Source: a virus. From it: a DNA stretch of 64,000 bases. How positions within the stretch are numbered: position 1 is the stretch's first letter; the number at the start of each line of letters is the position of its first letter. The position numbers and the translations under genes are program-made. The stretch is taken from IMG/VR virus record IMGVR_UViG_3300047558_000077, positions 108,365 through 172,364 of that record. One strand, 5' to 3'. Of this stretch, positions 2,685 to 18,131 are shown piece by piece. Under the pieces are notes generated by a model. That model did not search any database. It was not told the DNA's origin and was given only the letters and a program-made list of their open reading frames with translations.

Positions 2685-4055
2685 ATGTCTAATTGGAAAT
2701 ATGTCACCCGCACAGTTCAGGAATTTGTCAACGAGGCTCAACGTGATAACTGGAATGTTGATCCTGAGTGGCAGCGCCTTGACACAAATTTAAACCTTAA
2801 TGCTAAAGGCTCGAAGCCCTCTAAGGCACAGAGCATCATTGCTTCCATGTTTAATGGCCAAGATATTGGTGAAATTAAACTTTGTGACTATGAAGGTGTT
2901 AAGTCCTCAATTGATGGTGGTAATCGTAAGAGAGCCATTCTAAATTTTTATAATAACAAGTTTGCCCTTCCCAAGGGTAGCAAGTATGCAGGCCTAAAGT
3001 ATAAAGACCTTAGCGAAGATGCGAAAGAACTCTTCCTTAGCTATGTGATCCGTTTCATCGAATACGGTGAAATCACTACACAAGAAATTGGTGAAACTTT
3101 CCGTAACACCAACAATACAACTCCCGTCAATAAGCAGGAAATGCGTAACAGCGAAGGACAGAATCCAGTTGCGGTTCTCGTTCGTCGTACCACACGCAAG
3201 ATTGATGAGGTTGGTAATATCCCTCACATCCTCTTTGATTGGAGAATTAACGCAAAGGGTGATGCGGAATATACTTATCTTACCTTCAATAACAAAGGCC
3301 TGCATCTGGATGAACAGACGGCTCGTTTGCTTTGCCGTGTTTTACAGGGTGAAAAGTCCATTGCCGTGAGCGATGACGACCTTGATAAAATGTATGCAGA
3401 TTATGAGGCGTTTTTGACCGATGAGGAAAACCTCAAGAAGGCTAAGAAGAAGTTGTATGAAGTATTGGACTTTATTGTCAATATTGCCGATACAGCTAGA
3501 AAGTATAAGAATGGTCGTGGTCTTGCCCATAAGCAGTATGAAATGCTGGTTCGCCTGTATTTCTACCTTAAAGAACACCACAAGTCCTTTAAGGTTACCG
3601 ATGCTAGTGAATTTTGGGTTGCGTTCACTACCGCTATGGACTCGGTTCTTTCGTGTGACGATATCACATTTAAGGAGCGTAGCGGTAAGACTCGTGTCGT
3701 TGCAGAAGCCTTCGGTCAGTATCTTAAAAGCGACTTGAACGACCAGTGGAAGTATGATAAGTCCCTCGAACTCTTCCTGAATGAGTTTAATCTTGATAAC
3801 TGCGGTCTAAAGTTGCTTGATCCTAAGCGTTGCTTTAGCCGTGATGAAATCGAGAGTGCCTTGATCAAGCAAGGTTACAAGGACTTTATTGATGGTAAGA
3901 AACTGACCATGAAAGATGCGGTTGGTGCCCATGTTATTGCACATTCTAATGGTGGTAAGACGGAGACCGACAATCTAGTGGTCGTTTCTAAGGCTCATAA
4001 CACGGCGATGGGTACCATGCCCGTTGATGTTTACAAAGCCTCTCTCGGGTATTGA
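2685..4055 (+). CDS. DUF262 domain protein with C-terminal HNH nuclease motif
   Basis: 456 residues. The N-terminal third follows the DUF262/ParB-like pattern: DPEWQR near residues 26-31, then SKAQSIIASMFNGQDIGEI and SSIDGGNRKRAIL, equivalent to the family's 'DGQQR' motif. The C-terminal 43 residues form an HNH core with H416/H420 (AHVIAHSNGG), N430 (TDNL) and H438-N439 (KAHN). There are no zinc-binding CxxC pairs. DUF262 plus HNH is the architecture of GmrSD-type modification-dependent restriction enzymes and relatives. In a phage it could be a DNA-targeting effector against competitors or host DNA, but its target is unknown. It is monocistronic, with its own promoter and a structured repeat element downstream. 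Confidence 0.8.
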   Translation: MSNWKYVTRTVQEFVNEAQRDNWNVDPEWQRLDTNLNLNAKGSKPSKAQSIIASMFNGQDIGEIKLCDYEGVKSSIDGGNRKRAILNFYNNKFALPKGSKYAGLKYKDLSEDAKELFLSYVIRFIEYGEITTQEIGETFRNTNNTTPVNKQEMRNSEGQNPVAVLVRRTTRKIDEVGNIPHILFDWRINAKGDAEYTYLTFNNKGLHLDEQTARLLCRVLQGEKSIAVSDDDLDKMYADYEAFLTDEENLKKAKKKLYEVLDFIVNIADTARKYKNGRGLAHKQYEMLVRLYFYLKEHHKSFKVTDASEFWVAFTTAMDSVLSCDDITFKERSGKTRVVAEAFGQYLKSDLNDQWKYDKSLELFLNEFNLDNCGLKLLDPKRCFSRDEIESALIKQGYKDFIDGKKLTMKDAVGAHVIAHSNGGKTETDNLVVVSKAHNTAMGTMPVDVYKASLGY

Positions 4056-15291: not shown

Positions 15292-15969
15292 ATGAAAACT
15301 TTTAGACATTTATACAACGATCCGATTCTATGTGAACTGAAAAGGGAAGAATATAATGGCAAGCGATACTACATATCTCCAACAGGCAAGAGACTTCCCT
15401 CCGTTACTACCTTCTTATCCCATTTTAAAGGGGACGCCATCCTCAAGTGGCGGCAAAAAGTGGGGGAAGAAGAAGCGAATAAAATATCAGCAAGAGCAAG
15501 CCGAAGAGGTACAAAATTTCATTCTCTTATGGAATCTTATCTCGGAAATCAGGAAGGATTCCTAACTCACAAAGATGTTATGCCAGATATGCGACATTCT
15601 TTCAGATTGATGCAGCCTCTGGTTGACAGAATAGACAATATACATTATATTGAGACTATGCTTTATAGCGATGCATTAGGACTCGCTGGACAGGTAGATT
15701 GTATAGCAGAGTTCGATGGTGTTCCTTCCATTATAGATTTCAAAACATCTCTAAAACTGAAAAAAGAGGAATGGATTCTAAACTACTTTGAACAATGCAC
15801 CTGCTATTCTTTGATGTATGAGGAAATGACAGGAGTGAAGTGCAAGCAGATTGTTGTATTGATAGCAGTTGATGGCGAAGACCCGCAATGTTTTGTCAAG
15901 CAACGTAAGGACTACATTCCAGAACTAGCCAATAAGATCAAAACATTTAGACAGGAGTTTGTGTTATGA
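15292..15969 (+). CDS. PD-(D/E)XK exonuclease (RecB/Cas4-like)
   Basis: 225 residues. The N-terminus YISPTGKRLPSVTTFLSHF and the helix RASRRGTKFHSLMESYL are typical. The active-site strands are LAGQVDCIAEFDG and PSIIDFKTSLK (D...D-x-K), followed by the QCTCYSLMYEEMTG helix. The family is common in T4-like phages and probably degrades or processes DNA ends during recombination. There is no ribosome site before ATG 15292. The next gene overlaps by 4 nt. Confidence 0.85.
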   Translation: MKTFRHLYNDPILCELKREEYNGKRYYISPTGKRLPSVTTFLSHFKGDAILKWRQKVGEEEANKISARASRRGTKFHSLMESYLGNQEGFLTHKDVMPDMRHSFRLMQPLVDRIDNIHYIETMLYSDALGLAGQVDCIAEFDGVPSIIDFKTSLKLKKEEWILNYFEQCTCYSLMYEEMTGVKCKQIVVLIAVDGEDPQCFVKQRKDYIPELANKIKTFRQEFVL

Positions 15970-16124: not shown

Positions 16125-17591
16125 ATGATTATCACTCGTAACTGGATACGTGACGACATACTCATATACACCGAGAAAGCCACTGGCGGTCTTCGTGTGT
16201 ATGGTAAGAAAGACATATGCGAGTTTATCAATTATTGGAAACTGAAACTACTATCACATAATGCAAAGCCTGGTGATAAATTAGGATTTACGTTTGAGAA
16301 CACCGAGATTCATTCTTATGCTCTTATGTTTGCAGCATTTGAACTTGGGTTACGTGTTGTGGTTTTACATCGACCAAGCACAGAGAAGGAATGTTTGGCA
16401 CCAAAAAGCAATGCTCATTTACCTCTAGACTTCTATGTCTATCTCACATCATACCTAAATCGTTCAACTACTGTCACGGGTGTCAATCATTATCGAAAGC
16501 ATTCTAAAGTTTGCATTAGCTATGGTCCTATGGAATGGACCGAGTTTAGTGAAGACTTTAGATCAAATGAAGAAACACCTATAACAGTCAAACCCGACGA
16601 TGTTGCTTTTTGTTGTAACAGTAGCGGTACAACCGGAGATCCTAAACTCATATCATACACACACGAGTTTCTTTACAACCTATGCACACATAACTGGCAA
16701 GACTTAGGTTATAAAGACGATGATACCATTGTGCATCTGTCTTCCCTAAATCACGGTGGAGTCATAACTTTACTATTACCGGCACTAAGAACTTGCAAGA
16801 CACACTTCTTTTATAACTACATCTTTGCAGCATCATATGATCGTCTTCTATCATTCATAGATGTTTGTCTAGATTATAATGTGTCAAAAATATTCTTTGC
16901 AAACGGTGGGGAGCTGAATACGCTCATTGATCACTTAATAGAAACCGATAATAAACTATCCAATGTTAGTGCCTACATTCTTTCGTTTATCAGTCCTAGA
17001 TGGTCAGATACTATTCGTGATCAAAGACTAAAGGAGATTGTTAGCGTTTTTGGTTGTAGTGAGATATGTGGTCCTGTCTTTATGCCTAGACTAGACAATA
17101 GCAATGTTGATGGCTTTGATCCAAAGTTACTAGGCAAGCCAATGACAGGCTTCTATGAAACAAAGATCATTAATAACAGAATACACACGAAACTAAAAGA
17201 CGGAGGAGAGTTTGTCTTTGATGATGTTGTAGAAGATAGAGTAGAAGGCGCTTATTTCATATCAAAGAATAGACTACAGAAGATCAATGATGTGGATATC
17301 AATCCACTGGACATTATAGAGATAGTAGAAAGATATGTATCACGGTATGAGTTTGAGTTATATGTGGACGAAATCTATAACGAGATATACATCATAACTT
17401 CCAATGCCAATCTTGATAGAGGGAAGATAAGACAAGACATATCTGCATTCTATCTGGACAAGATAACTCTAACCGATATCATATACGAAAAGGAACTATA
17501 TGATACTCGGATCACTCACAAAGCGGAAAGAGATAAACTATCACACATAGTTGAAAGATTCCGCTTGACATTTCAGAATAACTCTGTATAA
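16125..17591 (+). CDS. AMP-binding (ANL superfamily) adenylate-forming enzyme
   Basis: 488 residues. The P-loop CNSSGTTGDPKLISYTH (164-180) matches the acyl-CoA/aryl-CoA synthetase A3 motif. FGCSEICGP (309-317) is the A5 motif. KNRLQKINDVDINPLDIIEI (381-400) is the hinge and C-terminal domain entry, and THKAERDKL (464-472) provides the A10 lysine, K467. The enzyme should activate a carboxylate as an acyl-AMP, but the substrate is unknown; there is no carrier protein or thioesterase beside it. It might modify lipids, a surface group or a small molecule. The 3' end contains the tmRNA promoter. Confidence 0.85.
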   Translation: MIITRNWIRDDILIYTEKATGGLRVYGKKDICEFINYWKLKLLSHNAKPGDKLGFTFENTEIHSYALMFAAFELGLRVVVLHRPSTEKECLAPKSNAHLPLDFYVYLTSYLNRSTTVTGVNHYRKHSKVCISYGPMEWTEFSEDFRSNEETPITVKPDDVAFCCNSSGTTGDPKLISYTHEFLYNLCTHNWQDLGYKDDDTIVHLSSLNHGGVITLLLPALRTCKTHFFYNYIFAASYDRLLSFIDVCLDYNVSKIFFANGGELNTLIDHLIETDNKLSNVSAYILSFISPRWSDTIRDQRLKEIVSVFGCSEICGPVFMPRLDNSNVDGFDPKLLGKPMTGFYETKIINNRIHTKLKDGGEFVFDDVVEDRVEGAYFISKNRLQKINDVDINPLDIIEIVERYVSRYEFELYVDEIYNEIYIITSNANLDRGKIRQDISAFYLDKITLTDIIYEKELYDTRITHKAERDKLSHIVERFRLTFQNNSV

Positions 17592-17592
17592 T
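17565..17592 (+). promoter_or_regulatory. tmRNA promoter inside the 3' end of the ANL gene
   Basis: TTGACA (17565-17570), 16-nt spacer, TATAAT (17587-17592). The start is expected at about 17598-17599, where an 8-bp hairpin of the acceptor piece begins. A T4-late-like AATAAATA (17590-17597) overlaps it, which could allow early and late expression. Confidence 0.8.
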
Positions 17593-17597
17593 AAATA

Positions 17598-17884
17598 CTA
17601 TGCCGAGGTCGTTGAGAGGAACGGCATAGACGTTTCGGACGGGAGTTCGACTCTCCCCACCTCCACCATAGGTACACATTTTGAGGTCTTGGTCGTTACC
17701 AGCATGGCAAAAACGGCGACAATGTGTATCTTTGATGGGGGTGTAACGGGTATCGACGGGCGTAGTAAGGGTTCAAGGAGACCAAAGGCAAATTGCAGGT
17801 GCAGCAAACGACAATGTACCATTTGATTACGCTCTAGCAGCATAATCATTGGGGTGGCGACTTCCCTAGAAACAGAAAAGTCGC
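17598..17884 (+). ncRNA. ssrA: Phage-encoded circularly permuted (two-piece) tmRNA
   Basis: Acceptor piece first: TTTCGGAC, T-stem GGGAG/CTCCC around TTCGACT (17641-17657), CACCTCC (17658-17664), A and encoded CCA (17666-17668). Coding piece begins GGGGGTG at 17737-17743, which pairs with CACCTCC to give a 7-bp acceptor stem with the alanine-type G-U at the third pair. It continues with a D-loop-like GGGTATCGACGGG. The tag reads GCA 17804 to TAA 17845: ANDNVPFDYALAA. Between the pieces, 17671-17680 pairs with 17721-17730, a hairpin over the spacer to be removed. Transcript ends at GCGACTT/AAGTCGC (17857-17884) and ATTTTC. Pseudoknots and helix P2 were not resolved. It rescues stalled ribosomes and tags proteins for proteolysis. 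Confidence 0.92.
17857..17884 (+). terminator. Terminator-like hairpin at the tmRNA 3' end
   Basis: GCGACTT (17857-17863) pairs with AAGTCGC (17878-17884), followed by ATTTTC. It may end the tmRNA precursor, with some readthrough into gp33. Confidence 0.65.
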
Positions 17885-17906
17885 ATTTTCAAAAAGGATC
17901 TATGTG

Positions 17907-18131
17907 ATGACACCGGATGATATTCAAAAGTTTAGTATGGAGATCGAGGAACTGGTCTATATGAAGGACATTCCTTATATTGATGCTGTTGTGGAATACT
18001 GTGAGATGACCGGGTTTGAAATAGAAACTGCGGCCAAATTAGTCTCCGGCGTTCTCAAATCTAAAATCAAACTCGAAGCAGAAAACCTCCACTACCTCAA
18101 AAAGTCAAACACCTCACAACTTCCTCTCTAA
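17907..18131 (+). CDS. 33: Late-transcription coactivator gp33
   Basis: 74 residues from ATG 17907 (AAAAAGGATC upstream). The core MKDIPYIDAVVEYCEMTGFE then ETAAKLVSGVLKSKIK and EAENLHYLKK follows the Gp33 coactivator pattern (T4: MSYLEATTAFLEE...AKFI...KIQSEAIDENLL). Gp33 bridges RNA polymerase beta flap and the gp45 sliding clamp to activate late promoters. It is shorter than T4 gp33 (112), mainly at the N-terminus. The neighbours gp59 and gp32 match the T4 order 33-59-32. Confidence 0.75.
   Translation: MTPDDIQKFSMEIEELVYMKDIPYIDAVVEYCEMTGFEIETAAKLVSGVLKSKIKLEAENLHYLKKSNTSQLPL

What the first reader, a model, noticed from the sequence alone, without database searches (positions are those of the whole stretch)
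17565..17884. Phage-encoded circularly permuted tmRNA with tag ANDNVPFDYALAA
Acceptor piece (T-arm, CCA at 17666-17668) precedes the coding piece (5' GGGGGTG at 17737). The 7-bp acceptor stem, G-U at the third pair, TTCG loop, tag frame and stop are all present. A 10-bp hairpin bridges the spacer between the pieces and a consensus promoter starts just before it. Two-piece tmRNA is typical of alphaproteobacteria, so this points to the host. The tag keeps the ANDN start and ends YALAA. A phage copy could redirect tagging or keep ribosome rescue active after host shut-off.
Basis: partly seen in the sequence, partly recalled or inferred. Interest (0 to 1): 0.85.

Follow-up and report, generated by a model that had tools for sequence, protein, structure and literature searches.

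The report
Phage two-piece tmRNA beside gene 33
This T4-like phage carries a complete, apparently working two-piece copy of the bacterial RNA (tmRNA) that frees stuck ribosomes; phage copies of this kind are already known, but close relatives show the gene is under strong selection, has its own 14-residue tags, and is sometimes invaded by an HNH nuclease gene.

Summary
One correction: the tag is probably 14 codons (AANDNVPFDYALAA), not 13, because relatives' tags all have 14 codons and the first GCA is the position-homologous resume codon. The window is the end of a 172-kb T4-like viral contig. The gene lies between an exonuclease and late-transcription coactivator gp33, as in isolated phage Melnitz, so the kind is known (PMC9004378). 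In 15 distinct relatives none of 22 predicted pairs is ever broken, 12 have two-sided changes, and G3-U70 is invariant: the RNA is maintained as an alanine-accepting tmRNA. The contig has no detectable SmpB, so the host's is probably used. No tmRNA starting ANDNVPF[D/E] was found in 84,980 bacterial and archaeal species. Unexpected: in several relatives the spacer cut out between the two pieces holds a whole HNH endonuclease gene ending one base before the coding piece; the window has the empty form.

The parts
17565..17592 (+). sigma-70-type promoter, TTGACA-16-TATAAT, inside the 3' end of the upstream AMP-binding gene
   Evidence: 12/12 consensus match; TTGACA followed by TATAAT or ATAAATA at the same distance in some relatives, not all
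17607..17668 (+). acceptor piece of the tmRNA: 5' strand of P2 (GGTC..GAAC), T-arm, 3' strand of acceptor stem CACCTCC 17658-17664, A, CCA 17666-17668
   Evidence: RF04321 and RF01849; covariation in relatives
17669..17736 (+). 68-nt intervening segment expected to be removed, closed by an 11-bp stem 17670-17680/17721-17731; no ORF here
   Evidence: stem length 10.5 on average in 25 distinct relatives against 6.1 for shuffles, with compensated variants
17737..17884 (+). coding piece: 5' strand of acceptor stem GGGGGTG 17737-17743, D-arm analogue, P2 3' strand, tag, 3' hairpin
   Evidence: RF04321, RF01849; 3' end set by hairpin
17798..17820 (+). hairpin around the resume codon, 17798-17802 paired with 17816-17820
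   Evidence: 89% of cells paired in 15 distinct relatives, two pairs with two-sided changes, 0/500 shuffles reach the covariation score
   Evidence: ARAGORN; all 16 distinct relatives' tags are 14 codons and align without gaps
17857..17884 (+). 3'-terminal hairpin of the coding piece, 17857-17863 with 17878-17884, loop holding the conserved AGAAACAGAA
   Evidence: fold, RF01849 alignment to its 3' end, conserved in relatives
17907..18131 (+). gp33, late-transcription coactivator; gene downstream, conserved neighbour
   Evidence: Pfam PF16805, E 2.6e-20; 58 related loci

Best explanation
It is a functional permuted ssrA (two-piece tmRNA) gene carried by a T4-like phage. The strong promoter at 17565 makes one precursor. 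Host enzymes (RNase P at the 5' end of the coding piece, 3' tRNA maturation at the CCA) remove the 68-nt spacer, and the two pieces stay paired through the acceptor stem and P2. Host AlaRS charges it through G3-U70; host SmpB and EF-Tu bring it to ribosomes stalled on broken mRNA. Translation resumes at 17801 and adds (A)AANDNVPFDYALAA, whose ALAA end directs the product to ClpXP-type proteolysis. The likeliest benefit is to keep ribosomes recycling while host mRNA and DNA are being degraded. Shown here: the gene, its structure, long-term selection on the structure, its conserved location. Inferred: transcription, processing, charging, tagging and benefit.
For: Two Rfam models above cut-off and ARAGORN. 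In 15 distinct relatives all 330 cells of 22 predicted pairs are standard pairs, 12 pairs have two-sided changes, G3-U70 is 15/15 while neighbouring acceptor pairs swap, and the covariation score is 0.442 against 0.125 for shuffles. Tags always 14 codons, begin (A)ANDN, end ALAA. Resume hairpin covaries. tmRNA evidence in 52 of 58 gp33 loci, 5 of the other 6 being cut close to gp33. Same place (exonuclease .. tmRNA .. gp33) in isolated phages Melnitz and HTVC008M. No integrase in the contig.
Against: No RNA-seq or protein data. No SmpB in the contig, so function depends on the host. RF01849 score is low (56 bits) against about 250-310 in the best-scoring bacteria, so it is diverged or shortened. 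T-loop is TTCGACT here but GGCAGTT, GGCGGTA or TGCGATT in relatives, so canonical T-loop contacts are not conserved. Contig is probably incomplete, host unknown.
Confidence: 0.88

Rival explanations
1. A decoy: the phage RNA binds SmpB, AlaRS or stalled ribosomes and blocks host trans-translation rather than performing it.
For: Phage DS6A carries a tag-less tmRNA-like RNA reported to inhibit host tmRNA in E. coli (cited in PMC11915505). The phage has no SmpB, so it would compete for the host's.
Against: The tag is kept at exactly 14 codons with ANDN start, ALAA end and stop in all distinct relatives; a decoy needs no tag frame.
Confidence: 0.05
2. It redirects tagging: the phage tag has a different fate from the host tag (for example escaping SspB-type adaptors or changing protease preference).
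For: Tag middle differs strongly between relatives and from sampled bacterial tags; 14 codons against mostly 12 in sampled alphaproteobacteria; ANDNVPF[DE] not found as a tmRNA tag in 84,980 species.
Against: Terminal ALAA, the ClpX-recognised end, is invariant in the relatives. Tag variation is partly explained by pairing with the sequence before the tag. Host tag unknown.
Confidence: 0.2
3. A by-product of site-specific integration: a host ssrA fragment picked up by imprecise excision, without function.
For: ssrA is a common integration site, and PMC9004378 raises this origin for Melnitz.
Against: No phage integrase domain in the contig, complete gene, fixed place beside gp33 across a lineage, strong covariation.
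Confidence: 0.02

Closest known systems
Two-piece tmRNA of Methylophilales phage Melnitz and of other marine and aquatic phages (PMC9004378)
   Same: Permuted ssrA in a T4-like Kyanoviridae phage, alpha-like, at the same place between an exonuclease and gp33; tag ANDNYVPVDYALAA ends DYALAA. That paper counted 53 two-piece tmRNAs among 18,146 phage genomes.
   Different: No detectable DNA similarity at E 1e-5 to any record of the phage collection; no glutamine riboswitch reached the cut-off in the window; 14-codon tag with a different middle; freed of most of the alpha-specific 5' extension.
Permuted tmRNA of Pelagibacter phage HTVC008M
   Same: Permuted tmRNA called by ARAGORN just upstream of the late-transcription gene; not annotated in the record.
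   Different: Short tag ANFNEYALAA (10 aa).
Alphaproteobacterial two-piece tmRNA (RF01849), e.g. Caulobacter
   Same: Gene order acceptor piece, spacer, coding piece; G3-U70; ANDN tag start.
   Different: 56 bits against about 250-310 in the best-scoring alphaproteobacterial genomes; those sampled have mostly 12-residue tags and no resume-codon helix in the phage register.
tmRNA genes with group I introns bearing LAGLIDADG homing endonucleases (PMC11915505)
   Same: A homing-type endonuclease gene inside a stretch removed from a tmRNA precursor.
   Different: In the phage relatives it is an HNH gene in the spacer of the permuted form, not an intron in the T-loop.

Membership tests
permuted (two-piece) tmRNA | acceptor piece precedes coding piece; covariance model above curated cut-off | tested here: met
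   RF04321 95 bits, cut-off 47; ARAGORN tmRNA*
permuted (two-piece) tmRNA | 7-bp acceptor stem with G3-U70 and CCA end | tested here: met
   7/7 pairs, G3-U70 invariant with covarying neighbours in 15 relatives
permuted (two-piece) tmRNA | tag frame with resume codon and stop, hydrophobic AA end | tested here: met
   AANDNVPFDYALAA*
permuted (two-piece) tmRNA | precursor cut into two pieces in the cell | not testable with these tools
   spacer is variable in sequence and closed by a conserved stem; no RNA data
permuted (two-piece) tmRNA | works with SmpB in trans-translation | not testable with these tools
   no SmpB found in this contig; host SmpB assumed
alphaproteobacterial tmRNA RF01849 | score above family cut-off and alpha-specific 3' end | tested here: met
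   56.2 bits, cut-off 50, aligned to the model's 3' end; weak compared with bacteria
phage tmRNA of the Melnitz type | same locus: exonuclease, tmRNA, gp33 | tested here: met
   exonuclease 15292-15969 phrog_298, gp33 17907-18131, Melnitz region; in this window an extra AMP-binding gene lies between exonuclease and tmRNA
phage tmRNA of the Melnitz type | glutamine riboswitch in the 3' domain | tested here: not met
   no riboswitch reached its cut-off in the window; PMC9004378 says it is not a defining feature

The most novel reading that the evidence does not exclude
In this phage lineage the excised spacer of the two-piece tmRNA is a home for HNH endonuclease genes. The nuclease gene fills the spacer from just after the CCA to one base before the coding piece, so RNA processing would remove it without harm, as an intron would. 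The window would then be an empty (target) allele, and homing with co-conversion would help explain why pieces and tags are shuffled between relatives (L180 has the same tRNA-like part as the window but another tag).
Probability: 0.4. Interest if true: 0.62.

Novelty: new member of a known kind. Interest (0 to 1): 0.4.

Why it matters
It adds a well-supported phage lineage in which tmRNA is kept under strict structural selection while the tag drifts or is swapped, which makes the open question of why phages carry tmRNA testable. It corrects the tag reading. The related loci show an HNH gene nested in the spacer of a permuted tmRNA, which I did not find described in the tmRNA papers searched and read. 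It would be a new kind of harmless niche for a mobile nuclease gene. The permuted layout also hides such genes from ARAGORN.

Tried and rejected
blastn of 17500-17950 against 50,697 phage records: no match. SmpB, ClpP and integrase in the contig: none. Tag ANDNVPF[DE] in 84,980 bacterial and archaeal species: 8 hits, none in a tmRNA by ARAGORN. A tmRNA in the first 50 kb of Caulobacter phage Cr30, by ARAGORN: none (the remaining 106 kb was not read). Resume-codon hairpin in sampled alphaproteobacterial tmRNAs: not at the phage register, 59% of cells paired against 89% in phages. HNH relatives in the two isolated Synechococcus phages examined (S-SRM01, S-SKS1) are not beside an annotated tmRNA. 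Host could not be identified: nearest named phages by gp32 infect Prochlorococcus (52%) and by gp6 Pelagibacter (37%). Excess identity of the coding piece between filled and empty alleles (98.7% against about 80% in flanks) was considered as proof of co-conversion and set aside, because structural constraint alone could give it.

Full report
What is there. Rfam's covariance models find a permuted tmRNA at 17607-17845 (RF04321, 95 bits, cut-off 47) and an alpha-type tmRNA at 17561-17887 (RF01849, 56.2 bits, cut-off 50); ARAGORN finds a permuted tmRNA with tag AANDNVPFDYALAA. The acceptor piece is 17607-17668 with CCA at 17666-17668, the spacer 17669-17736, and the coding piece 17737 to about 17884. 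The promoter scores 12/12 with a 16-nt spacer. The spacer stem is 11 bp.

Where it is. The window is bases 108365-172364 of a 172,364-base IMG/VR record, a T4-like phage: gp32 matches phrog_224 and is 52.8% identical to Prochlorococcus phage P-SSM5; gp6 is nearest to Pelagibacter phage HTVC008M. Upstream lie an exonuclease (15292-15969, phrog_298) and an AMP-binding protein (16125-17591, PF00501); downstream is gp33 (17907-18131, PF16805, E 2.6e-20). The record carries 24 tRNA genes by ARAGORN in another region. No SmpB, ClpP or integrase domain was found in it.

Is it maintained? I fetched 58 loci encoding gp33 relatives. A permuted tmRNA or one of its pieces was seen in 52: 40 by pattern; nine more in longer or altered form (L167-L170, L174, L176, L177-L179; Rfam confirms L167, L174, L176 and L177; L168-L170, L178 and L179 look identical to these over the stretch printed); two cut at a contig end (L171, L175); and one different permuted tmRNA 1.7 kb upstream (L184). 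Of the other six, five are cut close to gp33 (L149 of them still shows the tag), and only L183, the locus with 54% gp33 identity, shows none by ARAGORN or pattern. In 15 distinct sequences with the spacer removed, RNAalifold predicts 22 pairs; none is broken in any sequence and 12 show two-sided changes. Shuffling gives a covariation score of 0.125 +/- 0.020 against 0.442 observed, and slid controls fall to 0.06 or less. Acceptor stems occur as GGGGGTG/CACCTCC, GGGGGCG/CGCCTCC, GGGGCAG/CTGCTCC, GGGCCGG/CCGGTCC and GGGCCAG/CTGGTCC, and the third pair is G-U in all. That is the alanine identity element (established knowledge), so selection for alanylation is the simplest reading. Relatedness inflates such shuffle tests, but the slid controls and the zero broken pairs do not depend on the shuffles.

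The tag. In 16 distinct sequences the tag is always 14 codons and aligns without gaps. Relatives read AUAGGU|GCU AAC, sampled bacteria AUAGUU|GCA AAC, and the window GCAGGU|GCA GCA AAC, so the first GCA (17801) is in the homologous place and ARAGORN's reading is preferred. The resume codon sits in a small hairpin (17798-17802 with 17816-17820) that is 89% paired over 15 distinct sequences with two-sided changes at two pairs; part of the tag variation therefore follows from pairing. Forty-four alphaproteobacterial tags read here are mostly 12 residues (35 of 44), and none equals a phage tag. The string ANDNVPF[DE] was found in eight places among 84,980 bacterial and archaeal species, none in a tmRNA by ARAGORN, and in viral contigs of this lineage. 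Locus L180 has the same acceptor piece and the same start of the coding piece as the window, but tag ANDNYAPFEMALAA: parts of the gene are exchanged.

Is it new? Two-piece tmRNAs in phages are published: PMC9004378 describes Melnitz, counts 53 such genes in 18,146 phage genomes, and proposes maintenance of translation or tagging of host proteins. Melnitz has its tmRNA in the same gene order. HTVC008M has one that its record does not annotate. The window's gene is thus a new member of a known kind. The host inference is weak, since Melnitz carries an alpha-like tmRNA in a gammaproteobacterial host.

Something less ordinary nearby. In L167-L170 and L177-L179 the spacer holds a complete ORF of 156 or 144 aa beginning MKHKHHIIPKHMGGND, weakly matching Pfam HNH (E 0.0005 and 0.003, just below the curated score). 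The ORF starts 10 or 56 bases after the CCA and its stop lies in TTATGATGGG, one base before the coding piece. RF04321 still matches across 650-670 bases in L167, L177 and L283. A scan with this protein returned the same arrangement in L278-L282, L283 (158 aa, beta-like tmRNA, tag ANDSNYNYALAA), L284-L286 and L287-L289; several of these are the same contigs as the gp33 loci. Against the empty allele in L146, homology of L177 stops at 3150, just past the CCA, and resumes at 3632, at the coding piece. The tmRNA survey PMC11915505 reports endonucleases in T-loop group I introns, and a tRNA and a repeat in permuted spacers; its passages that I read name no endonuclease there. Mobility itself is inferred, not shown. 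ARAGORN misses these genes.

Verdict. Observation confirmed; interpretation right about the object, slightly wrong about the tag, weak about the host, untested about the benefit. Known kind, solid new member, with an unexpected feature in its close relatives.

Noticed in passing
L167:3097-3749, L177:3085-3747, L283:2428-3098 (also L278-L282, L284-L289): An HNH endonuclease ORF (144-158 aa) fills the spacer of the permuted tmRNA, its stop codon one base before the coding piece; ARAGORN misses these genes.
   Followed up: partly
L180 against window:17607-17783: Identical tRNA-like part, different tag (ANDNYAPFEMALAA), which suggests exchange of tmRNA modules between phages.
   Followed up: partly
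L144:3521-3960: A 242-nt spacer holds a 68-aa ORF without a Pfam match and a different closing stem.
   Followed up: no
window:16125-17591: AMP-binding (adenylation) enzyme gene in a T4-like phage directly upstream of the tmRNA; its end contains the tmRNA promoter; relatives in some of the same loci.
   Followed up: no
window:18148-18996: Nucleotidyltransferase-like protein (phrog_4400, phrog_1614) just downstream of gp33.
   Followed up: no
G000:C1:74500-84500 (L226): 24 tRNA genes covering most amino acids, in a separate region from the tmRNA.
   Followed up: no
L216:10121-10462 (Pelagibacter phage HTVC008M): Permuted tmRNA with tag ANFNEYALAA, not annotated in the GenBank record.
   Followed up: partly
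window:17587-17598 and relatives: ATAAATA is conserved just upstream of the tmRNA in the relatives, close to the T4 late promoter TATAAATA; the gene may have both early and late transcription.
   Followed up: no
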